This document shows positions 5,691 to 32,925 of a stretch of 64,000 bases of DNA, one piece after another. Positions within the stretch are counted from its first letter, which is position 1. Each line of letters begins with the position of its first letter. The position numbers and the translations under genes are program-made. The notes under the pieces are model-generated. The model saw only the letters and a list, made by a program, of their open reading frames with translations, had not been told where the DNA came from and made no database searches. Origin of the DNA: Hemileia vastatrix (lineage: Eukaryota > Basidiomycota > Pucciniomycetes > Pucciniales > Zaghouaniaceae). Location: NCBI GenBank assembly GCA_030280995.1, contig JASXTE010000005.1:31199501-31263500 (forward strand), in the 5' to 3' direction.

Positions 5691-7196
5691 TATTTGAGTA
5701 AATTTTTACCTATAAATTCTGAAAAATGAAGAGGGTATAGTTCTACCTTAATTCCTATTGGAAAATACAAAACCTCTGAATTCTTCAAATATAATGGTGG
5801 TTTTCTCAGAGCTATTTGTGAATTTGTTTTCATGAAAAATGATAATTTAAGCAATTGGTTTATTATGGGTAATGATATTTTAACCATGTTTGGTGTGAAA
5901 TTGGACCCAGAAAATAATTGCTTCACCTTGTGATTTAATGGCAAAAGGAGATTCAAAATTTCCTCATCTAGAAAACCTTCTGGGCATCTGTTAAATTCTT
6001 GTAACTCACTGATCAAGTGTAAAGGCAGACCAAGAATTGAAATGGATGATTTATTAAATGAAATAAATACTTCTTCTTTTGGTGATCAGTTAACTAGTGA
6101 ACAAAAGGATTCTATAATTGCCTCAATTACCTCTTTCCCTATGGCTTTTTCTCATGGTTCTCATGTCTTAGGAAGTGTTCAGGAAGAAATGAAAAATTAA
6201 CTTATCCTGTAACTTGAGTGATATTACTCCTAGTCTTAAGAAAAAACTATATCCTGCTTCTCCAACAAAAAGAAAGGATATTGAAGATAATATTGCCACA
6301 TTATTAAAAATGAATATCATTGAGAAATTGGATTTCACCCCCAAATATTGTGTCATCTCCCCAGTCTTAATTTCTTATGAAAAAGATAAGGCTAGATTAT
6401 GTGGAGATTACAGAGCATTAAACACTTATACTGTTGATGATATTTATCCTTTACCCAGTATTAATTCAATACATGCTACCTTGCAAGGTGCAAAATTTAT
6501 TAGTTGTCTGGATGGAAATAAAGGGTATCATCAAGTTCGTGTTGAGAAAAATTCTCAAACTTTTTTTGCTTATTGCTACTCATATGGGAATATATAAGTA
6601 TGTTAGAATGCCATTTGGCCCTAAAAATGCCCCTTCAGTTTTTCAAAAAGTCATGGATAACACTTTCCATCAGGAAATAATTGAGGGATAGCTCATGGTG
6701 TATATTGATGATATCATAGTTTTTTCTAAAACTTTTGATGAACATATGGTTCAGTTAAATAGGGCTTTCCAAAAAATGGATGAAATCAATATGACCTTGT
6801 CCTTGAAAAAGTGTAAATTTGGTTTTCAATCTTTGAAAGTCCTTGGCCATGTTGTGTCAGGCCTAAAAATTTGTGTAGACCACAACAAAGTTGCTGAAAT
6901 TCAAAATGTGAAGGCACCAACTTCTGTAAGAGAAATTCAAGGTTTTTTGGATATGTGTGGCTATTATAGACAATATATTAAAAATTTTCAGGTCATAGCC
7001 TTTCCTCTTACCAAACTAACTAGGAAAGATGTTGCATTCATCTGGAATGTTGACTGTCAAAAAGCTTTTGATACATCAAAATTTTGCTTAATGACAGCCC
7101 CTATCTTAACTCTTCCAGATTTTAACAAACCATTTGTCCTGTATACAGATGCTAGCTTTGTTGGTCTGGGTGCTGCCCTCCACCAGAAACAAATTA
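5691..7196 (+). pseudogene. pol 5' part of element A: protease tail, reverse transcriptase, start of RNase H
   Basis: Fragments encode the end of the protease region and the reverse transcriptase fingers/palm. 'CLDGNKGYHQV' lies near 6500 and the catalytic YIDD near 6705; the RNase H start 'VLYTDASFVGLGAAL' is near 7140. Stops and frame changes occur at about 5730, 5930, 6197, 6595 and 6690. The frame is cut at 7197 by Harbinger copy H1 and resumes at 10056 with the next codons of the same protein (…HQKQI / INDK…). Confidence 0.85.
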
Positions 7197-7566
7197 GGGG
7201 GTGTCAGTTCTGGCAAATCCGCACTTAAATTAAGTGCGGATTTCAAACCAAATCAGCACTTACAAATCAGCACTTAAATTTTGCAAAAAAGTCACTTATT
7301 TCAAAAAAGGGTGTCAGTTATGACCTCAAATCAGCACTTTTTTCCCGTTTTTTTTCACAACCACATTTTGGCCACAAAACATCCCTTCCTTTCTTACCCC
7401 ATCCCTGTCACATGTGACACACTGACCTTCCTCGCTACCTACCCATCAATCCTCGGCACACACCCCTTCCTGACATTTTCAATATTTTGACCAGGCATGT
7501 TTACATTCTTTTTTACTTATTTCTTCTACTTTTTAATCTTTTTTCTTGTTATGTGCCAGTTTCATA

Positions 7567-7640
7567 ATGCCTCCCAGACATTCCAAATCTCAAAAGGTAA
7601 CTCAAAAATCTGCTTCGTCACAAAAGTCTCCTCGTAAAGC
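7567..7640 (+). pseudogene. 5' remnant of the SANT/Myb-like gene in H1
   Basis: The first ~25 codons match the H2 SANT/Myb-like gene (MPPRHSKSQK… to …SSQKSP). The sequence then changes abruptly to unrelated DNA near 7645. It is a stub with no DNA-binding domain left. Confidence 0.8.
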
Positions 7641-8197
7641 AAGGATTACATATAAAAAAAATCAGTGACTTTTTCTATTACTTACAACTGTTTTTACAGA
7701 ATTGAAAACTATGTTTCAGCTAATATTTTATGGAAGTGAACTCTGTTCTTCGCCCGAAGAACAGAGTTCATCCTCCTATTTTCACACTCTGTTTGCACCA
7801 ATCTCCATCCCTTTCAATTCTATCAACACATGCTTGTCTTCCCTCCCCATGCCTTTCGCTATCCTCCCAGCCCCATTGTATGCCATCCTCTTTTAAAGGT
7901 AACTCAAAAATCTGCTTCGTCACAAAAGTCTCCTCGTAAAGCAAGGATTACATATAAAAAAAAATCAGTGACTTTTTCTATTACTTACAACTGTTTTTAC
8001 AGAATTGAAAACTATGTTTCAGCTAATATTTTATGGAAGTGAACTCTGTTCTTCGCCCGAAGAACAGAGTTCATCCTCCTATTTTCACACTCTGTTTGCA
8101 CCAATCTCCATCCCTTTCAATTCTATCAACACATGCTTGTCTTCCCTCCCCATGCCTTTTGCTATCCTCCCAGCCCCATTGTATGCCATCCTCTTTT
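7595..8197. repeat. 303-bp tandem duplication with perfect palindromes
   Basis: 7595-7897 is repeated at 7898-8197 with few differences; equivalent positions such as 7702 and 8005 are 303 bp apart. Each copy contains a perfect hairpin, GAACTCTGTTCTTCG – CC – its complement (7738-7769 and 8041-8072). The duplication begins inside the SANT gene stub, so it arose within the element. Confidence 0.9.
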
Positions 8198-8486
8198 GAT
8201 CCCCATTTCACCCCTCTCAACCTCTCCCAGACCCTTTTCTTCATTTAAAATGCCTCGGAACCCTTAATCTTCCCTTCCAACTCTTTCCCAACCTTTGAGT
8301 GACTGAAAAAATATGCGTTTGCTGAAAATATGCGATTTCATGTTGAGTTGATGAAAGAAAACACAGAGAGAAAAAAAAATAAGACTTTAACAGCAAATTC
8401 AAAAACCAAAAAAATATGCAAAAAAATTTACCATTCTCAGTGAATAATACATGCAAATTGATAATTTGAAGAGAAAGAGAAAAAAA

Positions 8487-9704
8487 TTAAAATTGCGTTG
8501 AAAAATGTTGGAGTGTTATTGGAAGGATTTTCGCCCTTATACTAGTTGATTGAGAAATAGAAGTGTTGGATATAGTCGGAGGTGAATCAACTTGTTCATC
8601 TTCATACAGCTCTAACCATTGATCTTTGAGGTCAGCAAGTAGGTTATGAAGTATAGTGCAACACAGAATCCATTTGATCACCGCCTCCATTTCAGATTTA
8701 TTTCTAAGAGGACTTCTTAATTCCCTTAAACTAGAAAAACGGCCTTTCAAGATTCCAATAGAATGTTCAATACGGACTCTTGACTTTACCAAATGATTGT
8801 TGAATTTGGCATTTTGACTGTCTTCTGAAGCTGCTCCCCGAAAAGCAGGAAGTACATACTTTCCATTCACATAAGCAGAATCTGCAAGAAGATACTGATT
8901 TTCATCAAAGAATTTTTCAGGTTCATTTGAAATATGCATTCTTTGGAAGACGTAGGAGTCATGACATGAGCCAGGATAGCCAGCAAAGAATGATATAAAT
9001 TTTTTGTTTACGTCACATATAAGCTGAACGTTAATTGAATATCTATAAAGAAGATATATTTGTTTGTGTTAGTTTCAAGGAGGATGAAAGGAGTTAAAAA
9101 TAATCTACCTCTTTTTACGGTCAAAGTAATTGTTTCCACCTTGACCAGGTTTCTGGCTCAAAGGAATAGTAGTACCATCAACAAAACCAATACATCCTGG
9201 AAAGCCCTCTGCTTGCATAACCTGAGATGATTCAAGTCGCTCTTCTTTTGTTGGCCAGGTGAGAAGTTGAGATTCCAAGGAGTTGATGGCAGTGATACAT
9301 CGTTTGGTATAAGTGTTAACTGAACCATACCCTAAATCAAAGACATTTTCTAAACGTTTCAAAGCGGCTCCATTACCATTTGAACCCAAACGACATAGTG
9401 TGATGGCCAATTGAATTGAAGGATGTCGTTTTTCTTTTTGAGAATTATTGTGAAATATGGGATGATCCTGAATAAGCTCAAGCAATTTAAGGAAACATTC
9501 CTGAGAAGTCCTGAACAGCTGTCTAAAACTGGGTGTAGATAGGTTAAGAAGTGTTTGGATGGTGTACTTGGGGGTATGAAGTACTTGAGGCTTTCTGGGA
9601 AGAAGGTAACGTTTCCTGGCCATTTTTGATAAAATGACAAAATCTTCTTCTAGATCAGAATCGGAATCAGAGTCCAAGAGCAGTTCAAGCGCCATGAAAG
9701 TCAT
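8487..9704 (-). CDS. PIF/Harbinger transposase (DDE_Tnp_4/HARBI1-like), H1 copy
   Basis: This is the DDE-type nuclease that excises and inserts the element. Two exons: 9704-9109 and 9042-8487, with donor GTAGAT and acceptor TATAG. They give 383 residues from the ATG used here. The homologous upstream start (ATG at 20527 in H2) is ATT in this copy, so 14 N-terminal residues are lost unless another start is used. The catalytic triad is intact: D in GFVDGTTIPLS, D in GSCHDSYVFQ, and E in SRVRIEHSIGILKG. A helix-turn-helix-like segment (ENVFDLGYGSVNTYTKR) precedes the core. Both exons are free of stops, unlike H2 and H3. It may therefore be able to act in trans if it is transcribed, which I cannot judge. 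Confidence 0.85.
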
Positions 9705-10058
9705 TGCTTTATGTAATTTATCACGATTTGAAAGTGAGGAAGGAATGACTCTTATATGATATGATATGAAGATGTAAGTGATGTACGATGTTTTGAGTTA
9801 TGAAGTGTTATTCTGCGGAGTGCTGCGTATGAATGGGATGATGCTGACAGATCAGTGAAATGGGACTTGATGGTGAAATCAGCACTTTTGGTTGAGAAAG
9901 TGCGGATTTGAGTGAAATAAGTGACTTATTTCATTTTGAAATCCACCAGTATTGGGGCTAGTGTGTTTTGGAAATCCGCACTTATTTAAGTGCGGATTTG
10001 GTCAAATTTAAGTGCGGATTTGTAAGTGCGGATTTGCCAGAACTGACACCCCCTATTA

Positions 10059-13313: not shown

Positions 13314-14197
13314 ATTTTTATCATTGGAGGACTATCAGCAGATTAAAGTGTCAGAATGCTTGGAATTCATAACACAAATTGGATTTTGGAGAAACAAGAG
13401 TAAGAAAACATATAAAATTTGAAGAAATAATTTTGAAAAATAATTTGGAAAAATCTTAATCATTTTATTTTTGCTATCCTACAGCCACTTATAGACTCAA
13501 CCGGCCCTTTGCCACTAAATTTTAACACTCCTAGTCCTGATAAAATTGCTAAAGTTGTTTCATTAGATTTTCTTAATCATTGGAATATTGTTCAGCCATC
13601 TTCACTTTTTTTTCTGTAAGTAAAGAAATTAACACATAAAATAGTTGTATTTAGGTATTTGTAAAATTATATTTTTGCCTTTTTTTTGAGTGCAATGAAA
13701 TTTTTTTAAAAGTGATTCCTTCCCATTCATTAAAAAGGATTCCCTGAGTATCTCTACATTCTATCATTGATATTTATGAGACATCTTTGCTATGTGGTAA
13801 AAAATCTTACAAATATTACAAAGTCATAATTTTATTGAAAATAAATTTTAAAAAAGTCTTTATAAGATATTTTTTGCAAAAATATACAGGTTTTTTTAAT
13901 AATAATAAAAACGCATCCTCTCCTATGTCTCCAATTATTGAAAATGTATTATAAGAAAATATCTAATATCCTCTGTCACTACTGTTTGGGTGCTACTTGA
14001 AAAACAGAAATATTAAGTAAAAAAATAATTTAATAAAACTATATTAAAGGTGACCCCTGTATATATTTTTTCTTTTTCAGATTTATATAACCTCTAGGGG
14101 TACAGATTTTTTTAATCTACTAACTATTCTTTAATATAAATCCATTCAAAATCCTTTAATATTTTTTTTTAAATTGCAACTTGATGCACATACAATA
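13314..14197 (+). pseudogene. Possible decayed host gene fragments
   Basis: Three open segments have plausible splice signals. (1) 13324-13399, reading LEDYQQIKVSECLEF…, with a GTAAGA donor. (2) About 13485-13616 after a CTACAG acceptor, reading PLIDSTGPLPLNFNTPSPD…, with donor GTAAGT. (3) About 13712-13798 reading 'IPSHSLKRIP' and, after an in-frame TGA, 'VSLHSIIDIYETSLLCG', with a GTAAAA donor. I do not recognise the family, and the phase between exons 1 and 2 does not join cleanly. It is cut at 14198 by Harbinger H2. It could equally be chance open sequence. Confidence 0.3.
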
Positions 14198-14567
14198 GGG
14201 GGTGTCAGTTCTGGCAAATCCGCACTTAACTTAAGTGCGGATTTCAAACCAAATCAGCACTTACAAATCAGCACTTAAATTTTGCAAAAAAGTCACTTAT
14301 TTCAAAAAAGGGTGTCAGTTATGACCTCAAATCAGCACTTTTTTCCCGTTTTTTTTCACAACCACATTTTGGCCACAAAACATCCCTTCCTTTCTTACCC
14401 CATCCCTGTCACATGTGACACACTGACCTTCCTCGCTACCTACCCATCAATCCTCGGCACACACCCCTTCCTGACATTTTCAATATTTTGACCAGGCATG
14501 TTTACATTCTTTTTTACTTATTTCTTCTACTTTTTAATCTTTTTTCTTGTTATGTGCCAGTTTCATA

Positions 14568-15882
14568 ATGCCTCCCAGACATTCCAAATCTCAAAAGGTA
14601 ACTCAAAAATCTGCTTCGTCACAAAAGTCTCCTTGTAAAGCAAGCCCTACACCTGAAAAATCAAAGGCAGGTTCAGGTCAGCTTAAAAAGGATGATTATC
14701 TCATCATAATCAACTTCCTTAAAATAAAATCAAATTTTGAAGCATGTTTTGGATGTGAAAAGTCCACTCGTATTGGACGTCCACCTTCTTCAAAGGTTAA
14801 TGGCTACTTGTTGATGGCCAATGAAGTAAGGAAGAAAACAAGGGGGAGAATCGATATCAATCCTAAACAAATGAAGGAGAGATTTAAGAGTTACCATTCA
14901 AAATATAAAAAGACTCATCATGCTGTAAATGAAACTGGCTTTGGTATTGACGATGATGATTTGGAGATTGGAATTACTACTGTTTCCGAAAAGCTCAATG
15001 TCATGTGTCCTTTCTATGAGGAAATGGATAATCTTTTTGGCACCCGAGTTGATGTAAACCCTTGGTTTCTACACGATACTACTAAGCATATACCTTCTGG
15101 ATCCAAACCTTCCTATAATCCTCCCAACACACCTTTACTTGAAGAAGATCAATCCCCTCCACCTTCTAACCATAGTTCAGCTGAAGATGATCCCAACTAT
15201 CAAGCAGAACAATTATATCACAGAAGATCTGAATCCTCAGAGGCCCAAAATTTAAATGTATGTTCACTTTTTGTTTTTTCTTCAATTCTTCTCTGAATTT
15301 CTCTTTCTTTCTAGTCTCCTCCTACTCAAACTCAATCTGCATTAAATAATCTCAATTCTGGAAATGTGAATACCACTTTAGAAGCTGCTTTAGAAGAACT
15401 TCCTGAAGCCTCTTGTTCAAACTCCAAACTAAAGCGTCGAGCCTCAACTTCAATGAACTTGAACCATCTATTAAAACGTGGTAATACTTCAACAAGCTCA
15501 TTTGGCTCCCTTGAGGATTATTTTGAAAAAAAAGATATAAGTAAGTTTTGTTTACTATATATCTTAATCATTAACTCATTTATTTATTTATTTCAATTTA
15601 ATTTTCTCAGCGAAATCAACTATTGCAAATAATGCCCTTGACTTTGAGAAGATGAATTTTGATCATATGCTAAGGAAAGATCAGCAAGCCTTAGATTTGG
15701 AAGAAAAAAAATTTGAGGTAGAGCAGATGGAAAGAGTAAATGACCGTCAATTTCAAAGAGAAATGGCTACTTGTGAATTGGAAAAACAAGAGAGTTTTAA
15801 AAAAAAAGATTTCATTATGGAATGTGTTAAAAATGGCCAATCTTATGAGGACATTAAAAAATTACTTGACCTTTTCAATTGA
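14568..15882 (+). CDS. SANT/Myb-like DNA-binding protein of the Harbinger element
   Basis: Three exons, 14568-15257, 15315-15540 and 15611-15882. The introns are GTATGT…CTAG and GTAAGT…TCAG. They encode 395 residues. A charged Ser/Lys-rich N-terminus is followed by a Myb/SANT-like helical region: LKKDDYLIIINFL (39-51), IGRPPSSKVNGYLLMANEV (69-87), and KERFKSYHSKYKKTHHAVN (103-121) with GFG after it. The middle is acidic and Pro/Ser-rich. The C-terminal ~85 residues form a coiled coil (LEEKKFEVEQMERVNDRQF) with a short end motif (EDIKKLL). The layout resembles plant and fungal 'Myb/SANT-like plus NAM-associated C-terminal' proteins of PIF/Harbinger elements, which bind the element ends and recruit the nuclease. 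I start at 14568 (MPPRHSK), not at the upstream ATG 14547, because H1 and HB copies match from there. Confidence 0.82.
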
Positions 15883-16051
15883 TAATTTGTTTTTCTAGTT
15901 AATTTAATTTTGTTTGATTTCTTTTTGGTAATATTTTCTTATATGCTGACTTATAAAAGGAAAAGAATATAGTACGTTATTTTTGACAAAAATTTGAATG
16001 TATAATAAAAATTTTCTATCTTTACTTTCTAGTCAATAAGTTTGCTTATCT

Positions 16052-16330
16052 AAATTTTTCTAAGTCATCAATTTCACATGTCAGATTTAAAAAATTGGCA
16101 ATGCCCTCCCCTGCATTTTATTGAAACAAGGGGTGGGTACCACCAAATTTTTCTAAGTCATCAATTTCACATGTCAGATTTAAAAAATTGGCAATACCCT
16201 CCCCTGCATTTTATTGAAACAAGGGGTGGGTACCACCAAATTTTTCTAAGTCATCAATTTCACATGTCAGATTTAAAAAATTGGCAATACCCTCCCCTGC
16301 ATTTTATTGAAGTAAAGGGTGAAAGTCATC
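16052..16330. repeat. 93-bp tandem repeat array (3 units) in H2
   Basis: Units begin AATTTTTCTAAGTCATCAAT, with equivalent ATGs at 16078, 16171 and 16264, exactly 93 bp apart. They contain CCCTCCCCTGCATTTTATTG and GGGGTGGGTACC. Because 93 is divisible by three, a repetitive 88-codon frame (16078-16344) stays open; I treat it as a by-product. The array lies between the 3' ends of the SANT and oxygenase genes. Related arrays occupy the same place in HB (27118-27545) and H3 (32713-32915). Confidence 0.9.
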
Positions 16331-16393
16331 AAAATTTAATATAATTACATAAATTAATTAATATATAAATAAGATATGTCAAGTATACTACTT

Positions 16394-16551
16394 TTAAAGT
16401 AATGACAATTCCTTAAGCCAAAATGCAGATCAAGTCTAGAAACTAGGTTTGGGACTTTCCACAGGTATAGGCTAGAGGAACCCCATGAAACAAATTAATG
16501 TTATCATGATTACCATTTATACAACACAAGGTCGTGGGCCCATTACTTTAA
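16394..16551 (-). other. Conserved 155-nt non-coding block bounded by inverted AAAGTAATG
   Basis: Bounded by AAAGTAATG (16396-16404) and CATTACTTT (16541-16549). It lies just downstream of the oxygenase stop codon. Near-identical blocks of the same length occur at 26890-27044 (HB) and 32494-32648 (H3). All share GGGGTTCCTCTAGCCTATAC and CTGCATTTTGGCTT, although the surrounding non-coding DNA of H2 and HB is much more diverged. There is no conserved open frame. It could be a structured 3' RNA element, a small non-coding RNA, a protein-binding site, or an old miniature insertion. Confidence 0.65.
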
Positions 16552-16622
16552 TTTCATAAATTGAAATATCATATTTATTTATTAAAAATTTATGGAAGAA
16601 TATTAAATATTTGGTGACTCTA

Positions 16623-17792
16623 CTAATCCCCATACTTTTTAGATCTACCTAAAGAATGTTTAAATTTATTACCTTTTTCTTCTTTTTTTAACTTGTTTAT
16701 TCGTTGGATTAACTTTTGACTGATCTGGAAAGAGCAACCAAAATGTGTGAAGTCTTGACAAGATTCCAAACCTGGAGGAGCCTTTGTGGTTTGGTGATTA
16801 TCGTAAGAAGAATTCCAAACTGTTTCGATGATTCCATTTCCTAATCCAAAATCGATTATACATCTATGATCCGGGAAATATAATCCATGTCCTTTAATTT
16901 TAGCAGGTGATGGAATAGGTTGTCCAGTGATAGGATGAATATATGTGAAAATTCCATAAGTGAGGTAATTGGCATCATTTGAGTCAGTGTGAATTCGATT
17001 ATGAAATCCAGAATGAGTGATTATAACATTTGAAAACATTAGATAATCACTGCTAATATCTTCCCATTCAGAGTCGCACCAGTTTGGTATTCCAAATCTC
17101 GTAGCAACTTCATGATTTTTTTCAAAAGCTTTATTGAAGAGTTTTTTAAGTCGAAGAGCAATAAATGAATTAAATGAAGGTAAAGTATTCCATTTTTGAA
17201 AATCATTATCTAATTCAGCTTTAGATAAAGATCTGAGTAAAGAATATATGCCTATTTGAATTAAATTCAGTAAAATGATATTAAAAAATCCAGAAAAATC
17301 TTTAAACATACCAAGAGAAAAACCTTTAACAAATCCTGGTCTCCATCCAATTCCAATCATGATTCCACCCAACAAATTCTTATTCCTTAAAGATAAGCGA
17401 AGCAAAGCCATTTGATAGAGTGTTATGATGAGATCGCAGAGTTGATTAAATGAATCATCTTTTAAACCATTAAAAGAATGGTTTTCGTAAATAAATTGAG
17501 GTTTGAAAGTATTATTAATAACAGCTTTAACTTCATCACCTCCAGTTTCAGTTAAATAATGTATATTTTCAGGTAACGTTTTCGAATATTTTTTTTTTCT
17601 TTCAACTTTAGTTTTATAGTACTTGATTTTTGAAATATGGCCAAATAATTGATCCAAGTGAATTTTTATTTTATAATTTCTTTTATTTCGATACTGTTCA
17701 TTTTTTGACAATGTTTTAGATGATGATTGAAAAGAAGCTGAATTTAAAGATGATGAGAGTGAGGTAAGTGGGGAATCTGAAGTTAAAGTCAT
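16623..17792 (-). CDS. Tet/JBP-like 2OG-Fe(II) oxygenase carried by the transposon
   Basis: A 389-codon frame. Tet/JBP enzymes oxidise 5-methylcytosine or thymine in DNA using iron and 2-oxoglutarate. Seen here: a Ser-rich basic N-terminus (1-70), then an α/β region ending in the double-stranded β-helix signature. The iron ligands are HTD (H268, D270, in FHNRIHTDSND) and the distal H333 (SYDNHQTT). They are followed by 'DFTHFGCSFQIS' (347-358), the spot where this family normally reads F-T-R-F-G-x-S-x-Q-I; here the residue is H350. A 60-nt segment (17311-17252) starts GTATGT, has TACTGAAT and ends AAATAG. It is in frame without stops, and the HB copy has the same boundaries with an in-frame stop inside, so it is probably an intron and the mature protein would be 369 residues. 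The family call rests on the motif pattern, not a database search. Confidence 0.75.
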   Translation of the reverse strand: MTLTSDSPLTSLSSSLNSASFQSSSKTLSKNEQYRNKRNYKIKIHLDQLFGHISKIKYYKTKVERKKKYSKTLPENIHYLTETGGDEVKAVINNTFKPQFIYENHSFNGLKDDSFNQLCDLIITLYQMALLRLSLRNKNLLGGIMIGIGWRPGFVKGFSLGMFKDFSGFFNIILLNLIQIGIYSLLRSLSKAELDNDFQKWNTLPSFNSFIALRLKKLFNKAFEKNHEVATRFGIPNWCDSEWEDISSDYLMFSNVIITHSGFHNRIHTDSNDANYLTYGIFTYIHPITGQPIPSPAKIKGHGLYFPDHRCIIDFGLGNGIIETVWNSSYDNHQTTKAPPGLESCQDFTHFGCSFQISQKLIQRINKLKKEEKGNKFKHSLGRSKKYGD

Positions 17793-17800
17793 GTATTTTT

Positions 17801-18981
17801 CTACTTAAAAATTTGTTACTTTTCAAACACCCAAAATTATACATTAAAAAAAACTCACTTAATTTAAATTAAAAAATAAAAATTCCTCAAAGACTAATGA
17901 GAATTTTTTTTTATTTCACTTGAACTTAATGAATATTTTTCTCTAAAATTAAAAAAAAAAATCAAAAAACAAAAAAAAAAATCAATAAACTGTTAAATTT
18001 TTTATAACACTTCCCCATTCCCCTAAATTCCCCTCTCCAAAGCCCTCTCCCACCTCCCAAAAACCCTAGGAAAACCCCCCCTCCACCCCCCACCAAATCC
18101 CCCAAATCCCCCCTCCAAATCCCCCAAATCCCCCCTTCAAAACCACCTCCAAATCCCCTCCAAACCCCCCTCCAAATCCCCCTCCAAACCCCCCTGCAAA
18201 TCACCCTCCAAACCCCCTGCAACCCCCCCAAACACCCCCTTCAATCCACCTCCTTTCACCCCCTCCAAACCCCCTCTAACCCCCCTCCAAATCCCCCTTG
18301 AAACCCCCCCAATACGTCCCTCTAAACCCCCCTAACCTCTCCTCCAACTTACTTAACGATTCGTTAGCAAATCGTTAAGTTAATGAACGATATCTGCTAA
18401 TCATTCATTAGCGAATCGTTAAGTTAATGAACGATTGGGTGCAATCGTTCAATAACTTAACGATTCGTTAACGAATCGTTAAGTGAAGGTTAAGGGGGGG
18501 TAGGAGGGATATGAGGGAGGATTTGGGGGAGTTTTGAGGGGGATAGGAGGGGGGTTTGGAGGGGGGGTTAGAGGCGGGTTTGGTGGGGATTTGGAGGGAG
18601 GATTTGGGGGATTTGGTGGGGGGTGGAGTGGAATGAGGGGAAGATATGAGGAGACCAAGAAGGGGGAGAAAGGGAGAGATGAGACCAAAGAGGGAGAAAA
18701 GAAAGGTTAGAGTGAGCCAAGGAGGGGGGAATAAGGCAGCCAAAGGGGGGAAAAGGGGGATGTATCCATTCCAAGGAGAGGGTAAAGGTGGGAAAAAGAC
18801 CAGGCCAAGGGGGGATAAAGAGAGAAAAGAGGGAGAGAAAGAGAGAGAAAAAAAAAGGGTTAATTTTACCTATAAATTTAAAAACAACCACTTACAAAAA
18901 AAAAACAAAAAAAAAAACCAAAAAACCAAAAAAAAAAAAAAAATTAGCAAAAAATTAAGTAAAAAGAATAAAATGACTTAC
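17801..18981 (-). promoter_or_regulatory. Inferred 1.18-kb 5'UTR intron of the oxygenase gene
   Basis: A strong donor, CTCTCCAG|GTAAGTC, lies at 18981/18980 on the minus strand. The nearest acceptor before the start codon is AAGTAG at 17801. The same donor context occurs in HB (24254/24255) and H3 (30867/30868). In HB an acceptor TTTTTTTCAG lies at 25451, ten bases before that copy's ATG, giving 1197 nt against 1181 nt here. A CT-rich stretch upstream of the donor fits a fungal promoter. Confidence 0.55.
18005..18850. repeat. C-rich / AACGATTCGTTA palindromes / G-rich inverted structure
   Basis: 18005-18345 is dominated by CCCCTCCAAA-type repeats. 18350-18482 holds several overlapping palindromes built from CTTAACGATTCGTTA and AACGATTGGGTGCAATCGTT. 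18486-18850 is the reverse pattern, GGGGTTTGGAGGGG and similar. The two flanks can pair as a long imperfect hairpin, and the G-rich arm has G-quadruplex potential. It lies inside the inferred 5'UTR intron of the oxygenase gene. Open frames here are low-complexity artefacts. Confidence 0.85.
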
Positions 18982-19267
18982 CTGGAGAGATGAGTTGAGA
19001 AAAAAGAAATATAAGTGAAATTGATTGAGTGATGTAGGAAGAGAGGAGAAAACGGATATGAGTGAAGAAAAAAAAGAGAGTGACTGAAAAAATATGCGTT
19101 TGCTGAAAATATGCGATTTCATGTTGAGTTGATGAAAGAAAACACAGAGAGAAAAAAAAATAAGACTTTAACAGCAAATTCAAAAACCAAAAAAATATGC
19201 AAAAAAATTTACCATTCTCAGTGAATAATACATGCAAATTGATAATTTGAAGAGAAAGAGAAAAAAA

Positions 19268-20527
19268 TTAAAATTGCGTTGAAAAATGTTGGAGTGTTAT
19301 TGGAAGGATTTTCGCCCTTATACTAGTTGATTGAGAAATAGAAGTGTTGGATATAGTCGGAGGTGAATCAGCTTGTTCATCTTCATACAGCTCTAACCAT
19401 TGATCTTTGAGGTCAGCAAGTAGGTTATGAAGTATAGTGCAACACAGAATCCAGTTGATCACCGCCTCCATTTCAGATTTATTTCTAAGAGGACTTCTTA
19501 ATTCCCTTAAACTAGAAAAACGGCCTTTCAAGATTCCAATAGAATGTTCAATACGGACTCTTGACTTTGCCAAATGATTGTTGAATTTGGCATTTTGACT
19601 GTCTTCTGAAGCTGCTCCCCGAAAAGCAGGAAGTACATACTTTCCATTCACATAAGCAGAATCTGCAAGAAGATACTAATCTTCATCAAAGAATTTTTCA
19701 GGTTCATTTGAAATATGCATTCTTTGGAAGACGTAGGAGTCATGACATGAGCCAGGATAGCCAGCGAAGAATGATATAAATTTTTTGTTTACGTCACATA
19801 TAAGCTGAACGTTAATTGAATATCTATAAAGAAGATATATTTTTTTGTGTTAGTTTCAAGGAGGATGAAAGGAGTTAAAAATAATCTACCTCTTTTTACG
19901 GTCAAAGTAATTGTTTCCACCTTGAGCAGGTTTCTGGCTCAAAGGAATAGTAGTACCATCAACAAAACCAATACATCCTGGAAAGCCCTCTGCTTGCATA
20001 ACCTGAGATGATTCAAGTCGCTCTTCTTTTGTTGGCCAGGTGAGAAGTTGAGATTCCAAGGAGTTGATGGCAGTGATACATCGTTTGGTATAAGTGTTAA
20101 CTGAACCATACCCTAAATCAAAGACATTTTCTAAACGTTTCAAAGCGGCTCCATTACCATTTGAACCCAAACGACATAGTGTGATGGCCAATTGAATTGA
20201 AGGATGTCGTTGTTCTTTTTGAGAATTATTGTGAAATATGGGATGATCCTGAATAAGCTCAAGCAATTTAAGGAAACATTCCTGAGAAGTCCTGAACAGC
20301 TGTCTAAAACTGGGTGTAGATAGGTTAAGAAGTGTTTGGATGGTGTACTTGGGGGTATGAAGTACTTGAGGCTTTCTGGGAAGAAGGTAACGTTTCCTGG
20401 CCATTTTTGATAAAACGACAAAATCTTCTTCTAGATCAGAATCGGAATCAGAGTCCAAGAGCAGTTCAAGCGCCATGAAAGTCATTGCTTTATGTAATTT
20501 ATCATGATTTGAAAGTGAGGAAGGCAT
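19268..20527 (-). pseudogene. PIF/Harbinger transposase, H2 copy, one nonsense codon
   Basis: Exons 20527-19890 and 19823-19268 (donor GTAGAT, acceptor TATAG) would give 397 residues. The DDE triad is D190 (GFVDGTTIPLS), D241 (GSCHDS) and E305 (RIEHSIGILKG); a helix-turn-helix-like region is at about 131-149. The original start MPSSLSNHDK is present here but lost in H1. At codon 262 the H1 copy has CAG and this copy TAG (19678-19676). The protein would therefore be cut before the third catalytic residue. Otherwise it is nearly identical to H1, so this is a recent lesion. Confidence 0.9.
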
Positions 20528-20839
20528 GACTCTTATATGATATGATATGAAGATGTAAGTGATGTACGATGTTTTGAGTTATGAAGTGTTATGCTGCGGA
20601 GTGCTGCGTCTGAATGGGATGATGCTGACAAATCAGTGAAATGGGACTTGATGGTGAAATCAGCACTTTTGGTTGAGAAAGTGCGGATTTGAGTGAAATA
20701 AGTGACTTATTTCATTTTGAAATCCACCAGTATTGGGGCTAGTGTGTTTTGGAAATCCGCACTTATTTAAGTGCAGATTTGGTCAAATTTAAGTGCGGAT
20801 TTGTAAGTGCGGATTTGCCAGAACTGACACCCCCTAATA

Positions 20840-22324: not shown

Positions 22325-22708
22325 ATAGGGGGTATCAATGTTCAGGGATCCGCAATTAGGGATCAGGAATTTTTTTTCCTGGGATCAGAAATTATTAAGT
22401 GCAGAAGATTCTTATCCACTAGCCCTGGGGCTAGTGGATAAGGAATCCACAATAATGCATTATCTCGCCTCTTATACCCCAATTTCCATTTCAAATTCCT
22501 GATCCCAAACTCATCTCATCCATGATGGATTTGCAGGAAAGTCACACGACTCATAATTGCTGATGCCATCCTTAAGTCTTTCCTCACTCTATGCTACTTA
22601 ATTTTGGTGGAAACACTTAAGTTTTTTTTCTATCTACACACCCCAACTGCACATTTGGCAGTGAATTCTCACTTCCTTCATCACATAACCCTTCCACCTG
22701 CAACAATG

Positions 22709-23966
22709 AAACACCTCTCTACTAAGAAGCTACTTCACTCAACAATGAATGCTATTACTTTTCTTTTAGTTCTTTACTATAAATCTGACTCTTATTTGGA
22801 AGATGCTTTAGCTTATATGTGTTTTCTTTCCAAAAAGTGTTACATCATCACCAGGGGGCCAAATCTTTATCACAATCCCTGATATGATCTGGCCTCCATT
22901 CTCAACATTCCTCATTTAACCTTCACCCAACGTTTTAGAACTTCTCCCAATTCTTTCTTCAAACTTTATCAAATCATCTCCAATCATCCTATCTTTCATA
23001 AAAATTCCCATAACAAACAGCGTAATCCTGCCATCCAACTTGCTGTTGCACTATGTCGCTTTGGCTCAAATGGAAACGGTGCTTCTGTAAGACGTTTGGA
23101 TAGTCTCTTTAACATAGGTTATGGTACCGTGATATTATACACTAAGCCCTGTATGATTGCTATCCTTTCCCTCAAGTCTCAAACACTTGCTTGGCCAACT
23201 CCAGAACAGCAACTTGAATTCTCTCAAGTAATGCAAGCTGAAGGTTTCCCTGGCTGTGTAGGATTTGTTGATGGCACAACTATACCTTTGAGTCAAAAGC
23301 CTGCTCATGATGGCAACCATTATTTTGATTTCAAAAAAAGGTTTCTTCAAAATCTTCTCCAATTTCTCATCCTTCATAAACTAGCTTTTTATCTTCTTTC
23401 TAGATACTCTATTGGCGTTCAACTTGTATGCAATGTCAATAAAAAATTTATTGCTTTTCATAGTGGCTGCCTTGGCTCATGTCATGACTCTTCCGTCTTC
23501 CAAAGAATGAGAATTTCTGAAACCCCTGACTCAAACTTTGACGAATCTCAGTACCCCCTTTCAGACCCAGCATATGCAAGTGGAAAGTACATCATACCTG
23601 CTTTCCATGGTGCAAGTTTAGAAAGTGACGCCAAAACTGCCTTTAATTATCACCTTGCCCAATCAAGAGTACGAATTGAACATGCTATAGGTATTTTAAA
23701 GGGACAATTTTCTAGTCTTCTGGTTGAGAATCCAATTTCAAAAAAAATTGGAGATCAAAACTGCAAATCATTGGATAATGACTTGCATAATACTCCACAA
23801 TATCCTAGCTGATTTAAAGGATGAGTGGAATGATCTTTATGAAGAGGAGGATCCTGAACCAGCACTGGCTCTCCCCTCCCTTGAATCACAAAACATTCAT
23901 TCAACCAGCATACGCTCTATCATTATGCCTATTACTCTCCAACATTTCTCTTCACCACCCTTTTAA
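22709..23966 (+). pseudogene. HB transposase (DDE_Tnp_4), broken
   Basis: It aligns throughout with the H1/H2 transposases. The first exon runs from about 22709 (MKHLSTKK…) to 23340, with QVMQAEGFPGCVGFVDGTTI holding the first catalytic D. An intron ends TTTCTAG at about 23403. The second exon has GSCHDSSVFQ and SRVRIEHAIGILKG, the other two catalytic residues. Lesions: TGA at about 22880 where H2 has a lysine codon, and a frameshift near 23725. The remainder (HWIMTCIILHNILADLKDEW… to …QHFSS) lies in another frame, ending at 23966. Confidence 0.85.
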
Positions 23967-24399
23967 ATTATTTTTTGTACTCTCCAAATTTCCTCTTTGT
24001 GTACTCTATTCACTTGGTTTGGTATTTTGGTTTGTTGCATATTCATTTTTTTTTAGAATTTACGATGAATATCTTTTTTTTGGATGGCTCATTGGTTTTC
24101 TTTCACCAGCTCAACATGAAATCACATATTTTCTGAAATCGCATATTTTGTCAGTGAATTTTTTTTTCATTCATCACTCATATTCTTTTCAGCCTCTTCT
24201 CAAACATCACTCAAATATTTTTGTTACTTTTATTTTCTCAACTCATCTCACCAGGTAAGTCTTTTTTTTCTTTTTTTCTTGTTTTTTATTTGCTAATCAT
24301 GAATTATTTTTTTTTGCTTTTTTTTGTTTTTTTTTGTTTTTTTTAAAAGTCCTTTTTTTTTATTTTTAAGGTTAGACTAATTTTTTTTTCTCTTTTTTT

Positions 24400-24990
24400 T
24401 TCTTTTTTTTTCTCTCCTTCACCCTCTTTAGCTGCCTCATTTCCCCCCTTTTCCTTCTCTTTACCTGCCTCAAGTCTCTCCTTCTCCCCTCTCTTTACCT
24501 TCCTCAAGTCCCCCTTATTTCACCCTCCTTACCTGTCCCGAATCCCCCCTTTCCCCCCTCTTTAGGTTCCTCATGACCCCCTTCCCTTCTCTTTAGGCGC
24601 CTCATGACCCCTCCTTCCCCCCTTTTAGGTCCCCTCCCCCCCTTCCACTCCCCTTTAGCCACCTCTACCCCCCCTCCTTCTTAACAAACGATTGCTAACA
24701 ATTGTTTGTTAAGAAGGAGGAGGGGCTAGTAGAGGCTTAAGGGGAGTGGAAGGGGGGTGTTTGAAGCGGCTAAAGAGGGGGGAAAGGTGGGGGTTGGAAC
24801 ATCTAAAGAGGGGTGAAGGGGGGGATTTTGGGCGGTTATGTGGTAATTAAGGAGGGGGTTTCAGGGGGATTTTGAGACAGGCAAGTAGGGGATTTCAGGG
24901 TGGTTTTGAGACAAGGAGGGAGGTATTTTATAGGGGATTTCAGGGAAATAAAGGGGGGGGAAAGGGGACTTTTATGGGAGTTAAAGAGGG
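24400..24990. repeat. Pyrimidine arm / palindrome / purine arm in HB
   Basis: 24400-24683 is C/T-rich, 24711-24985 is G/A-rich, and the centre (24675-24720) is the palindrome CTTCTTAACAAACGATTG – CTAA – CAATTGTTTGTTAAGAAG. Pairing extends outward to about 24636-24755 with few mismatches. It has the same position and organisation as 18005-18850 of H2, with unrelated detailed sequence. Confidence 0.85.
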
Positions 24991-25460
24991 GTTACCTATT
25001 TTTTTATAAAACATACTAAAATGTAATTTATTTATTTTTTTGGCAGAATATTAGAAAAAAAATCTTTTACTTTCTGTTAAGGTCTTTCACTGTAAATTAC
25101 AAAACAAAAAAGTTTTAGATTTTAATTTTTAATTTTTCTTCCAAATAATTTTACTGAATTTAAATTTTTTTTAATTTATTTGTTTTGATTTATCTTTTAC
25201 TGATTTTTTTTTAATTATTTTGACAGGATTTTCTGTGAAGGTTTTTTATAACCAAACTTCAGGTTCTCTTTTGTATTTTTTTTTTTGAAATAATTTTTAC
25301 TGAATATTATTATTTTTCTTTATGTTTTAAAAAAAAATTAATTTTTTTAAAAGGATTTTGCTTTAAATTTTATTTTAAAAGATATTATTACGTGAGTTTT
25401 TTTTTAAAAAATATGTGTTGAATTTTTTTTTGACATTTAAATTTTTTTCAGATCAAAAAA

Positions 25461-26817
25461 ATGTCTTCTTCTTCAGATTCACCCCTTACTTCTCTATCAT
25501 CTTCATCTTTATCCTCTTTATCATCTTCATCTTTATCATCTCTATCATCTACTTCAAAACCAACTTCAATACAATCATCTTCTAAATCATCAAAAATAAT
25601 TAATTATAATCAGTTTCATCAGAATAAAAGATATCTGAAAAAAAAAATTCTTCTTCTAAATCATCAAAAAAAATTAAAGATAATCAGTCTCATCAGAAGA
25701 AAATATATCTGAAAAAAAAACCATCATCTAAATCATCAAAAAAAATTAAAGATAATCAGTCTCATCAGAAGAAAAGATATCTGAAAAAAAAAATTCTCTG
25801 TGAAATTTTTTTTTGTCATATCCCAAACATTTCTTTTCATAGAACTAAAGTAGATAAAAGAAATCAATATCCAAAAACATTACCAGAAGATATCAAATAT
25901 CTAACCAAATTTGGAGATGATCAAGTTGTTGCAGTTATCAGTTATACTTATAAGTCTCAATTCATTTTGGAAGTTCATTCATTTGATTGTGTAAAAGATA
26001 AATCTTTTTATCAACTCTTGTATCTTATCATAACTCTTTATCAAATGGCTTTGGTTTGGTTACCTATAAGTAATACAAATTTGTTGAGTGGTATCATGAT
26101 TTGATTTGGTTGGAGACCTGGTTTTGTTAAAAGATATTCTCTTGGTATGTCTAATAATTTTTTTTCCATTCTTAATATCATTTCACTTATTTCATTTATA
26201 TAGGCATATATTAATTGCTCAAGAGTATCACAAAAGCTCAAAAAGATGAAGATTTTCGCTTATGGGGCACTCTACCTTCCTTTACTTCTTTTCTTGCTCT
26301 TTGACTCAAAAAGCTCTGTAAAAAGCATTTGAAAAAAATCATGAACTTGCAACCAAATTGATGTGACTCCAAATGGGAAGATATCACCCACAAATATCTT
26401 TTATTATCTAATGTTATCATCACTCATTCTGGATTTCACAATAGGATTCATATTGATAGGAATGACACCAATTTTCTAACGTTTGGTATATTCTCATATA
26501 TCAATCCAACAACTGGCCAACCAATACCATCTCCAGCTAAAATTAAAGGAAATGGTTTATATTTTCTAGACCACCGGTGCATCATTGATTTTGGTTTGGG
26601 AAATGTTATCATCAAAACTATTTGGAATTCTTATAAGGATAATCATCAAACAACCAAAGCTCCTCCTGGTTTGGAATCCTGTCAAGATTTCACACATTTT
26701 GGTTGCTCATTTCAAATCAGTCATAAGTTGATTCAAAGAATCAACAAGGTAAATAAAGAAGGTAAAGTTAATTGATTTAAAAAAACTTTATCTAGATCCA
26801 AAAAGTATGGGCATTAG
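25461..26817 (+). pseudogene. HB Tet/JBP-like oxygenase, broken
   Basis: It starts MSSSSDSPLTSLSSS, matching the Ser-rich start of the H2 gene, with expanded Ser/Leu repeats and a duplicated KSSKK(N/I)-type segment. Collinear blocks follow: KTLPEDIKYLT, LIITLYQMAL, GWRPGFVK, TLPSF(T)SFLAL, SGFHNRIH, DNHQTTKAPPGLESC, DFTHFGCSFQIS and SKKYG. The HTD-equivalent reads HIDRNDTN, so H and D are kept. The 60-nt intron of H2 has a counterpart at about 26145-26204 (GTATGT…TATATAG). Frameshifts near 25690, an in-frame TGA at about 26103, further breaks around 26300-26360 and a terminal change make it non-functional. Confidence 0.82.
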
Positions 26818-26889
26818 AGTTATCATCAAAAATTTTAGATTTTTTCATAAATTTTTAATAAATATTTTTATATATCAATTTGCTCAAGT

Positions 26890-27044
26890 AAAGTGATGAG
26901 CCAAAAACCTTTGGTTTTATAACAGGTAATCATGATAACATTTATTTGTTTCATGGGGTTCCTCTAGCCTATACCTGTGGAAATTCCCACACTTTTGTTT
27001 CTAGATTTGATCTGCATTTTGGCTTGAGGAATTGTCATTACTTT
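26890..27044 (+). other. Conserved 155-nt block, HB copy
   Basis: It is bounded by AAAGTGATG and CATTACTTT and lies downstream of the oxygenase pseudogene in the same relative orientation as in H2. It shares GTTTCATGGGGTTCCTCTAG and the CATTTTGGCTTGAGGAATTG core with the H2 and H3 blocks. Confidence 0.65.
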
Positions 27045-27117
27045 TAACTAGGGAAATTGATATATATTAGATATTTATTTAATAATTTATGTAATTATAT
27101 TAAATTTAGATGACTTC

Positions 27118-27545
27118 CACCCCTTACTTCAATAAAATTCAGGGGGGGTATTGCCAAATTTTCAAATCTGACATGTGAAATTGATGACTTAAAAAAATTT
27201 TGGTAATACCCACCCCTTGCTTCAACAAAATGCAGGGGAGAGTATTGCCAATTTTTTAAAACAGATATAGAATTTTTTTGAGTTGTAAATATTTTGGTGA
27301 AAAATTTTTGGTGATACCCTTCCCTTACTTCAATAAAATCCAGGGGGGGGTTTTCAGAAATTTCTTATAAGACTTGTGAAATTCTTGACATGTAGGAATT
27401 TTGGGGATACCAGTAAAATGCAGGGGGTAGTAAAGCCAAAGTTTCATATAAGACTTTCAAGATTCATGACATGAAAGAATTTTGGTGATACCCACCCCTT
27501 ACTTCAAAAAAATCCAGGGGTGGGGGATTGTCAAATTTTCAAAGG
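27118..27545. repeat. Degenerate 93-bp tandem repeat array in HB
   Basis: About five units start CACCCCTTACTTCAATAAAA (27118, 27211, ~27319, ~27405, 27493). It is the reverse complement of the H2 array, as expected from the mirrored gene order. The first two are exactly 93 bp apart; later ones are indel-rich. Confidence 0.85.
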
Positions 27546-27697
27546 AGACATGAAAATTTTTTTTTAAAAAAGAATATTTAACATTAAAATACAAAAATTC
27601 AAGTAATGATTGATAGAGTAATGAAATACAGGAAATTATTGTAAATTTTATGTACAAATAAATATGAACAGTTGAAGTGTGAGAGAAATAAAACAAA

Positions 27698-29155
27698 CTA
27701 GTCATCCAAAAATTTCTTTAAATGTTCAATTTCCTCAACAGATTTATTAGATTTAACGCATTCTATCAAGTAATCTTTCTTTTTATAATTTTCTTCATGA
27801 TCAAACTTATATTTCATCTGCTCTAATAGGTTTTGATTTTCAAGTGTTTTCTCCTCTTTTTGTAAATTTTCAATACTTAGAGTTAACTCAAACTTCTTCT
27901 CCTCTTAATCTTCGGCCCAAACATCCTTCCATAAAGAAAGCTCGTACTTCCTCTCCTCCAAATCTTGGGCCCGATCATCCTTCCGTAAAGAGAGCTCGTA
28001 CTTCCTCTCCTCCAAATCTTGGTCCCAATCATCCTTCCACAAAGAGAGCTTGTACTTCCTCTCTTCCAAATCTTGTAGCTTATCATCCCTCCTTAAAGAG
28101 AGCTTGTATTTCTTCTTTTCAAATCTTAGAGTCTCTTTAGCAATTTTCACTTGTTCTAGAGTGATAATAAAAATAAATATAAAGTAGAAGAAAAGCAGAG
28201 TAAAGTAATAAGAGGTATGGTATCTCTTACCAGCATCAAATTTCTCTAAAAATTGTTCCATAGACAAAAATCGGGTTTTTGATGAAGTATCACTTTTTCT
28301 TCTTCTTTGGGAGTGGAAATTTAGACTACTTGAAGCCGTACGCTTCTTGTTCAAGGTCATATTTTCCTCCTCATCATTGTCACTACCTTCAGACTCAGTT
28401 GATTGAGGATCCTGGGTTTGTTTGTCAGCCTTTTAAGAAATAAGAAGAAGATAAGTAAATAAAAAATAGAATTGATAAGATAAAAGAAAAAAGAAACAGA
28501 CCTGAGTTAGATTTGGTTGGGTTAAATTTCCAATAGGATCTACAGAAATGCTATCTAGATTTGTCTCATTCAAATGAGGGGAGGCTTGAGTGGAGGAAGA
28601 GTATGGGAAAAGATTTGCTTCAACATCATGTTTGGAGATAGGATCTTCTCCATCCAACATGTTTACAGGATTAACATCAGCTCACTCTCAAAAAATTGCA
28701 TCCATCTCTTTAAAGTAAGGACATAAAGATTCAAGTATATTGTCTATGGATTTGATAACCTTAGTTATATTGATGTCGGTAACCCCAAAACCAGTGGAAG
28801 ATGAAAGAGCCTTTGCCTTCTTGTATTTGGCTTGGTAATGCTTGAAGCATTCAGAAATCTGTTTAGGCAAAACATCAATGCTTCCCTTGGTCTTATTCCG
28901 TAATTTATTTGCCATTAGAAGATAGCCATTAACTTTTGATGCTGGGGGCCGTCCTACTTTAGTTGCATACTCAGTACCAAAACAAGAATCATAGTTAGAT
29001 TTGGTTTTCAGCAAGTTGATAAGAATGAGATGATCATCTTTTTTTAATTTAACAGTCTTAGATTTCTCGGCTGAGCGGGGGAAAGAGGGAGTAGTGGGAG
29101 TTGAAGAACAACTGGGGGATGGCTGCCTTTGAGAAGATTTAGGATGACGAGGCAT
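27698..29155 (-). pseudogene. HB SANT/Myb-like gene, broken, with expanded coiled-coil repeats
   Basis: It starts MPRHPKSSQRQPSPS and matches the H2 gene through KKDDHLILINLLKTKSN, VGRPPASKVNGYLLMANKL and FKHYQAKYKKAKALSSSTGFG. Two TGA codons (about 28680-28690) interrupt it where H2 reads FGTRVDVNP. Exon boundaries parallel H2: donor at about 28502, acceptor AAAAG near 28434, next donor GTAAGA near 28230, acceptor CTCTAG near 28155. The C-terminal coiled coil contains four to five 18-residue repeats (DLEERKYELSLRKDDRAQ), interrupted by a TAA at about 27907. The end motif EEIEHLKKFLDD parallels EDIKKLLDLFN. Confidence 0.8.
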
Positions 29156-31710: not shown

Positions 31711-31793
31711 CAAATTTCACTTGTCTTATTTCACATTTTTATATTGCATATTTAGAGGATAAGGATTCTGAAACTCTTATATGATTATTATCT

Positions 31794-32420: not shown

Positions 32421-32493
32421 AGTTGTCATCGAAAATTTTATGTTTTTTCATAAATTTTTAATGAATATTTTTTATGTATCAATTTCCTCAACA

Positions 32494-32648: not shown

Positions 32649-32712
32649 AAACTAGGGAAATTGATATATATTAGATATTTATTTAATAATTTACGTAATT
32701 ATATTAAATTTA

Positions 32713-32915: not shown

Positions 32916-32925
32916 GATGAGAATG

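What the first reader, a model, noticed from the sequence alone, without database searches (positions are those of the whole stretch)
14198..20836. A PIF/Harbinger transposon that carries a Tet/JBP-like DNA oxygenase gene
Seen: one TIR/TSD-bounded 6.64-kb unit holds a DDE_Tnp_4 transposase, a SANT/Myb-like protein and an intact frame with the HxD…H pattern and terminal FG(C/T)SxQI motif of Tet/JBP-like 2OG-Fe(II) oxygenases. Known: fungal Tet/JBP expansions have been linked to KDZ-type DNA transposons in mushrooms, and PIF/Harbinger elements usually carry only nuclease plus Myb/SANT. Inference: this element may modify DNA methylation at its own ends or target, or escape methylation-based silencing. 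I do not know of this combination being described.
Basis: partly seen in the sequence, partly recalled or inferred. Interest (0 to 1): 0.88.

Follow-up and report, generated by a model that had tools for sequence, protein, structure and literature searches.

The report
Rust-fungus Harbinger transposon carrying TET-like gene
A cut-and-paste transposon in the coffee leaf rust genome carries, besides its transposase, a gene for a TET-like DNA-oxidising enzyme; transposons of this kind were described in related rusts in December 2025, so this is a further and slightly different case rather than a new kind of element.

Summary
Window 14197-20835 is a 6,639-bp element with terminal inverted repeats, a 3-bp AAT duplication, a Myb/SANT-like gene, an intact 389-aa Tet-like oxygenase (PF20515, E=1.8e-31) and a DDE_Tnp_4 transposase cut by a stop codon in this copy. 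The host is very probably Hemileia vastatrix. Of 20 more loci fetched by their TET gene, 19 are two-ended elements with the same three genes. The combination is not new: Kojima (2025) described fifteen TET-bearing Harbinger families in Puccinia and Austropuccinia ('PHISTA'). Differences here: a 3-bp AWT duplication rather than TA, a weakly Myb/SANT-like third protein, and a genus absent from that main text. The window also holds a diverged second three-gene family and a chimera of both families. TET is under purifying selection between families (dN/dS 0.24), but copies with and without TET show equal CpG decay, so no protection in cis is visible. Of 150 scored transposase matches (capped), 139 have no listed TET within 10 kb; the four of these that were fetched lack TET and most of the Myb gene. 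Relief of methylation-based silencing in trans is the likeliest function, unproven.

The parts
14194..14196 (.). left target-site duplication AAT
   Evidence: three bases outside A..T termini agree on both sides in 19 of 20 two-ended copies directly and in the twentieth (L023) after a one-base shift at a changed terminus
14197..14228 (+). left terminal inverted repeat (AGGGGGTGTCAGTTCTGGCAAATCCGCACTTA)
14568..15882 (+). Myb/SANT-like gene, three exons (14568-15257, 15315-15540, 15611-15882), 395 aa, intact here
   Evidence: gene model read from splice sites, open in 9 of 20 copies; PF13837 E=0.002, below cut-off
16052..16330 (.). about 2.8 copies of a 93-bp tandem repeat downstream of the TET gene
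   Evidence: copy number varies among elements
16623..17792 (-). TET-like 2OG-Fe(II) oxygenase gene, intronless, 389 aa, intact here
   Evidence: PF20515 E=1.8e-31; at least 106 genomic matches (capped); H268xD270 and H333 invariant in 4 of 4
18213..18622 (.). long imperfect inverted repeat of CCCCTCCAAA-type units between the TET and transposase genes
   Evidence: (arms of 198 nt, 71% complementary)
19268..20527 (-). DDE_Tnp_4 (HARBI1-like) transposase gene, exons 20527-19890 and 19823-19268, 397 aa in unbroken copies
   Evidence: PF13359 E=6.4e-13; open in 11 of 20 copies
19676..19678 (-). premature TAG (codon 262) in the transposase of this copy; copy L012 has a stop at the same codon
   Evidence: the TET- copy L029 is open there
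20804..20835 (-). right terminal inverted repeat
20836..20838 (.). right target-site duplication AAT
7196..10054 (+). element E1: deletion derivative of the same family without TET and without most of the Myb gene, transposase frame present but its start codon reads Ile; ATT duplication
   Evidence: 98-99% identical to the focal ends, interior missing
22327..29598 (-). element E2: second, diverged family with the same three genes in the same order, degraded; AAT duplication (assumes one changed terminal base)
22706..23965 (+). E2 transposase (53% identical to focal over the main stretch; limits read by eye)
   Evidence: PF13359 E=1.7e-18
25461..26817 (+). E2 TET-like gene (72% identical over residues 178-388, 55% over 24-175; stops inside; limits read by eye)
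27704..29155 (-). E2 Myb/SANT-like gene (about 32-34% identical overall; 54% in the aligned domain region; stops inside; limits read by eye)
   Evidence: PF13837 E=0.013
30397..33829 (+). element E4: chimera, focal-family ends and transposase exon 1 around an inverted E2-like interior with a truncated TET gene; ATT duplication

Best explanation
This is one copy of a multi-copy, three-gene PIF/Harbinger-superfamily DNA transposon of the coffee leaf rust Hemileia vastatrix. The DDE nuclease and the Myb/SANT-like protein are the expected transposition pair; the third gene is a transposon-borne TET-like 2OG-Fe(II) oxygenase. Shown here: the element structure, a 3-bp AWT target duplication, the family assignments of nuclease and oxygenase, co-residence of the three genes in two diverged families, purifying selection on TET between families, and heavy CpG-to-TpG decay of the copies. 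Inferred: the enzyme oxidises 5-methylcytosine on transposon DNA and so loosens CpG-methylation silencing, working in trans for all copies, including transposase-only derivatives that have lost TET and most of the Myb gene.
For: PF20515 E=1.8e-31 and PF13359 E=6.4e-13; iron-binding H268xD270 and H333 invariant with three Austropuccinia psidii proteins and kept in E2. 19 of 20 other fetched loci are two-ended elements with the three genes; 1 of the 20 two-ended copies (L010) has all three frames open. Same gene order in E2, whose transposase is about as far from the focal one as Puccinia transposases are. TET dN/dS between focal family and E2 is 0.24 (bootstrap 0.17-0.33) and 0.12 against the E4 part. 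Rare C-to-T changes at 80 of 142 CpG bases against 63 of 1,688 other C/G bases point to CpG methylation of the element. In the stem rust Puccinia graminis, CG methylation was measured and is concentrated on young transposons (PMC8444563, passages read).
Against: No activity, expression or methylation data were available here. CpG decay is equal in TET+ (n=20, 25.7-fold over other C-to-T) and TET- copies (n=5, 27.2-fold; Fisher p=0.42), so protection in cis is not seen. Within the family TET dN/dS is only mildly below neutral (median 0.675 over 107 pairs), and of 20 copies 11 have a broken TET frame and one more (L019) has lost its stop codon. Of 150 scored transposase matches, 139 have no listed TET within 10 kb: amplification does not need TET in cis. 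The AlphaFold model of the enzyme failed (pLDDT 31.6) and no solved structure matched by sequence.
Confidence: 0.6

Rival explanations
1. The TET gene is a passively carried passenger: a cassette spread between transposon families by template switching or recombination, with little benefit to this element now.
For: E4 joins focal-family ends to an inverted E2-like interior with TET sequence. TET is less diverged between the families (pS 0.52) than DDE (0.76) or the Myb gene (0.77). Most of the 150 best transposase matches have no listed TET nearby and four of four fetched lack it. Within-family TET dN/dS is near neutral. Kojima also infers passive transfer between transposon lineages.
Against: Purifying selection between families (dN/dS 0.24 and 0.12) and iron-binding residues kept down to 33-37% identity.
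Confidence: 0.25
2. The oxygenase acts on another target: it modifies bases at the cut site or target, or host chromatin, and serves the transposition step itself or target choice rather than escape from silencing.
For: Kojima notes that the function is not validated and that other modifications of cytosine or thymine cannot be excluded for rust (PU-type) enzymes. Equal CpG decay with and without TET is compatible.
Against: Transposase-only copies with the same ends amplify without TET in cis, so TET is not needed in cis for the reaction; no direct evidence.
Confidence: 0.1
3. The oxygenase gene merely lies next to or was inserted into a single Harbinger copy (unrelated neighbour).
Against: 19 of 20 further loci have the gene at the same place between the same ends; a diverged second family has it too.
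Confidence: 0.01

Closest known systems
TET+ Harbinger families, lineage 'PHISTA' (Kojima 2025, PMC12730594)
   Same: Rust host; Harbinger-superfamily DDE transposase; TET/JBP-like dioxygenase gene plus a third protein in one element; here the transposase is closest to Puccinia proteins (54-55% identity); termini flanked by TA on both sides.
   Different: Here the base next to TA is duplicated as well in every two-ended copy, so the duplication is 3-bp AWT, not TA; the third protein is weakly Myb/SANT-like, where Kojima reports no Myb/SANT domain in the third proteins of TET+ Harbinger families; Hemileia has 0 occurrences in that main text (its Table S1 and Figure 1 were not seen).
Canonical PIF/Harbinger (including the Nuwa lineage as summarised by Kojima)
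   Same: DDE nuclease plus Myb/SANT-type second protein; 3-bp duplication.
   Different: Adds a TET gene; duplication AWT rather than the TWA that I recall for canonical elements.
Kyakuja/Dileera/Zisupton elements with TET/JBP genes (Iyer et al. 2014, recalled; summarised in Kojima 2025)
   Same: Transposon-borne TET/JBP genes in basidiomycetes.
   Different: Unrelated transposase superfamily; the mushroom enzymes of Kyakuja are of Kojima's AG type.
CcTET of Coprinopsis cinerea (as described in Kojima 2025)
   Same: Fungal TET-like enzyme related to transposon-borne copies; reported to oxidise 5mC (and 6mA).
   Different: Close to the AG type; activity of rust enzymes not validated according to Kojima.

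Membership tests
PIF/Harbinger superfamily | DDE_Tnp_4 / HARBI1-like transposase | tested here: met
   PF13359 E=6.4e-13; homologs at 54-55% in Puccinia annotated DDE Tnp4, and HARBI1 names among hits
PIF/Harbinger superfamily | Terminal inverted repeats | tested here: met
   both termini in the window copy and in 19 of 20 fetched loci
PIF/Harbinger superfamily | 3-bp target-site duplication (canonical) | tested here: met
   20 of 20 two-ended TET+ copies including the window (L023 after a one-base shift); by eye: 4 of 4 TET- loci and E1, E2, E4 (E2 assumes one terminal base change). The triplet is AWT, not the TWA that I recall as usual
PIF/Harbinger superfamily | Accessory Myb/SANT-like protein | tested here: inconclusive
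   PF13837 below cut-off in two diverged families, E=0.0012-0.002 and 0.013; low-confidence model has helices at 8-27, 41-58 and 66-90, pLDDT 46; no protein homologs at E<=1e-3; no relevant PDB match
PHISTA (Kojima 2025) | TA dinucleotide duplication | tested here: not met
   TA does flank both ends, but the next base agrees too in every copy; the parse is AWT
PHISTA (Kojima 2025) | Third protein without Myb/SANT domain | tested here: inconclusive
   weak Myb/SANT match in both families; PHISTA third proteins were not available for comparison
PHISTA (Kojima 2025) | Place in the transposase tree with TET+ Puccinia families | tested here: inconclusive
   focal and E2 transposases join four Puccinia proteins at 100/99, but which of these are PHISTA is not known here
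Tet-like 2OG-Fe(II) oxygenase (PF20515) | Profile match over curated cut-off | tested here: met
   110 bits against 27
Tet-like 2OG-Fe(II) oxygenase (PF20515) | HxD...H iron-binding triad | tested here: met
   H268, D270, H333 invariant in 4 of 4; kept in E2
Tet-like 2OG-Fe(II) oxygenase (PF20515) | Oxidation of 5-methylcytosine in DNA | not testable with these tools
   needs an enzyme assay or methylome

The most novel reading that the evidence does not exclude
The TET gene is a public good among Harbinger transposons of one genome: full elements supply transposase, DNA-binding protein and a silencing-relief enzyme in trans; transposase-only cheaters that shed TET and most of the Myb gene make up the bulk of the best-conserved transposase copies; and TET cassettes are swapped between Harbinger families by recombination, as caught in element E4, whose ends belong to one family and whose TET belongs to another. 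In addition, the 'TA' duplications that define PHISTA may be a mis-parse of a 3-bp AWT duplication.
Probability: 0.3. Interest if true: 0.65.

Novelty: new member of a known kind. Interest (0 to 1): 0.42.

Why it matters
It extends TET-bearing Harbinger elements to Hemileia, with a chromosome-scale assembly and near-identical TET+ and TET- copies side by side. That gives a natural experiment for the open question of whether transposon-borne TET enzymes relieve methylation of their own copies, of all copies in trans, or of nothing. The first look here, CpG decay, finds no difference between TET+ and TET- copies. The E4 chimera is a concrete trace of how TET sequence can pass between families.

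Tried and rejected
Rejected: 'TET gene as lone neighbour or single insertion'. Rejected: 'TA duplication' for this family, because the base next to TA agrees on both sides in every copy. Rejected: 'novel combination', because Kojima 2025 describes it. Not supported: cis-protection of TET+ copies from CpG decay.

Led nowhere: AlphaFold2 of TET with a four-sequence alignment (pLDDT 31.6) and of the Myb-like region with two sequences (pLDDT 46); neither model was used for fold searches. No PDB sequence match for TET at E<=1; one irrelevant PDB match at E=0.33 for the Myb-like alignment. No homologs of the Myb-like protein at E<=1e-3. No Rfam match in the window at gathering scores. Genome-wide counts of the terminal repeat and of the Myb gene could not be had because the genome search did not complete. 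A first dN/dS run of E2 on the wrong strand gave meaningless values for TET and DDE and was redone. The first CpG count used sites of the whole element but events outside 18000-19110; one search recounts on the same stretch and is the one cited. Two paper searches found no paper and two gave listings of which I read none.
Full report
What was claimed and what is there. The sequence, the open frames and the inverted repeats bear this out. Comparison of copies puts the element at 14197-20835, beginning AGGGGG and ending CCCCCT, with AAT on both sides. The oxygenase frame, 17792-16623 on the minus strand, matches Pfam PF20515 'Tet-like 2OG-Fe(II) oxygenase superfamily' with E=1.8e-31, and the transposase's second exon matches PF13359 with E=6.4e-13. 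The Myb/SANT label is weaker: PF13837, E=0.002, below that family's cut-off.

Gene models. Reading splice sites and comparing copies gives a three-exon Myb-like gene (395 aa), an intronless TET gene (389 aa) and a two-exon transposase (397 aa in unbroken copies). In the window copy the transposase carries a TAG at codon 262, just before the stretch LLADSAY that holds what I take, from recalled knowledge of the family, to be the second catalytic aspartate; copy L012 has a stop at the same codon, while the TET- copy L029 is open there.

The host. The window lies in a genome of 747,610,610 bases in 791 contigs. PMC10652848 (main text read to the first reference lines) reports an assembly of Hemileia vastatrix Race I of 747.98 Mb in 794 scaffolds with a largest scaffold of 71,415,227 bases, exactly the length of contig C26 here. 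I take the host to be that assembly.

Is the TET gene part of the element? A search of the host genome with the TET protein scored 106 matches at 85-100% identity, a lower bound set by the tool. I fetched 20 loci other than the window, the best-scoring ones. Of these 20, 19 have both termini; L013 has only the left one. With the window that makes 20 two-ended elements of 6.5-7.5 kb, differing from the window copy by 0.5-1.9% and by repeat-number changes and insertions, none of which removes a gene. Of these 20, 8 have an intact TET frame (11 are broken and L019 has lost its stop codon), 11 an intact transposase, 9 an intact Myb-like gene, and one, L010, all three. The choice of loci by TET score favours intact TET.

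Target duplication. In 19 of 20 two-ended copies the three bases outside A...T agree on both sides (ATT or AAT); in L023 they agree after a one-base shift, because its right terminus is changed. Four TET- loci and three more elements in the window, read by eye, agree as well; E2 needs one changed terminal base. The copies also read TA next to the G and C runs (again L023 and E2 with their changed termini apart), so a TA duplication could be called by mistake; but the base next to TA is the same on both sides each time, which a 2-bp duplication does not explain. L021 and L022 have nearly the same flanks and may not be independent.

Other elements in the window. The window holds three more. E1 (7196-10054) is a derivative of the focal family with ends at 98-99% identity and only the transposase gene, whose start codon reads Ile. 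E2 (22327-29598, reversed) is a second family with the same three genes in the same order: transposase 53% identical over its main stretch, TET 72% over residues 178-388 and 55% over 24-175, Myb-like protein about 32% overall, with stops inside the genes, and 54% in the aligned domain region. E4 (30397-33829) is a chimera: its ends match the focal family at 92% and 96.5%, while its interior, inverted, matches E2 at 79-89% and includes a truncated TET gene. In numbers, the E4 transposase part is close to the focal family (dS 0.075) but its TET part is far from it (dS 1.03).

Selection and exchange. Between the focal family and E2, TET has dN/dS 0.24 (bootstrap 0.17-0.33) at dS 0.88; for transposase and Myb-like gene the synonymous sites are saturated (pS 0.76 and 0.77 against 0.52 for TET). 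TET therefore shares a younger ancestor between these families than its partners do, or was exchanged. A transposase tree of 28 rows puts focal, E2 and four Puccinia proteins together at 100/99 without resolving them, so the two transposase lineages are about as old as the split from their Puccinia relatives. Within the focal family and its subfamilies (window and 16 loci), TET dN/dS has a median of 0.675, range 0.44-1.24, over 107 pairs with dS above 0.05: most copies decay nearly neutrally after insertion, as transposon copies do.

TET-less derivatives. Of these 150, 11 have a TET match within 10 kb; none has one of the 114 further PF20515 matches that near. Both TET lists are capped, so 139 is an upper figure for TET-less copies among the 150, and no total for either kind is known. 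Four of the 139 were fetched: all four are 2.9-3.6 kb elements with both termini and transposase, lacking roughly window positions 14660-19078, that is, most of the Myb-like gene and all of TET, and carrying repeated copies of the region at the start of the Myb-like gene. That remnant suggests that they arose from three-gene elements by deletion. Six contigs that hold TET matches have none of the 150 transposase matches; since ties were listed contig by contig, this looks like the effect of the cap.

Methylation trace. Across the 20 copies, outside the repeat-rich stretch 18000-19110, rare C-to-T changes (1-3 copies) fall on 80 of 142 CpG bases and on 63 of 1,688 other C/G bases; TCG is mildly favoured (35 of 50, against 21 of 42 for ACG, 13 of 26 for GCG and 11 of 24 for CCG). 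In the shared transposase region the CpG excess is 25.7-fold in the 20 TET+ copies and 27.2-fold in five TET- copies (Fisher p=0.42). CpG methylation of the family is thus likely, and no protection in cis by TET is visible; the test has only five TET- copies and would not see protection in trans or protection limited to the time of transposition. CG methylation of young transposons was measured in the stem rust (PMC8444563, passages).

What is known. Kojima 2025 (PMC12730594; abstract, results parts 1-2 of 3, discussion part 1 of 2 and legends read) describes fifteen TET+ Harbinger families in five Puccinia species and Austropuccinia psidii, names the lineage from Puccinia PHISTA for its TA duplications, states that the third proteins of TET+ Harbinger families have no Myb/SANT domain, infers passive TET transfer between transposon lineages and proposes escape from methylation-based silencing. 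Iyer et al. 2014 is not held and is cited from recall. The finding is therefore a further TET+ Harbinger element in a genus with no mention in Kojima's main text (0 occurrences of Hemileia). I do not file it as PHISTA, because the defining TA duplication was tested and not met; whether PHISTA itself has been mis-parsed is open.

Most likely mechanism. Transposase and Myb-like protein act on the ends (inferred from the superfamily). The TET-like enzyme, conserved in its iron site and under purifying selection between families, probably oxidises methylcytosine and relieves silencing for all copies in trans (inferred). The abundance of TET-less derivatives with well-conserved transposase fits a trans-acting product, or a dispensable one. 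Activity, substrate and expression were not tested.

Noticed in passing
window 30397-33829 (E4): Chimeric element: ends of the focal family around an inverted, E2-like interior with truncated TET; the whole is bounded by an ATT duplication.
   Followed up: partly
window 18213-18622 and 24422-24838: Both three-gene families have a long, C-rich/G-rich imperfect inverted repeat between TET and transposase genes; its role is unknown and its length varies among focal-family copies.
   Followed up: no
   Followed up: no
genome G000, e.g. C121:25675392-25676378: A set of TET copies matches only from about residue 61 to 389 at 95-98% with a frame of about 325 aa: perhaps a subfamily with a different or lost N-terminus.
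   Followed up: no
L029-L032: TET- derivatives carry one to three extra copies of the region at the start of the Myb-like gene (window 14474-14660), at 335-bp spacing where there are several.
   Followed up: partly
window 44120-58098: Long frames, two beginning almost alike on opposite strands (44120 + and 53693 -), look like LTR-retrotransposon polyproteins by eye; not analysed.
   Followed up: no
window 61199-61663: Match to PF00071 Ras, E=1.2e-09: probably a host GTPase gene near the right end of the window.
   Followed up: no
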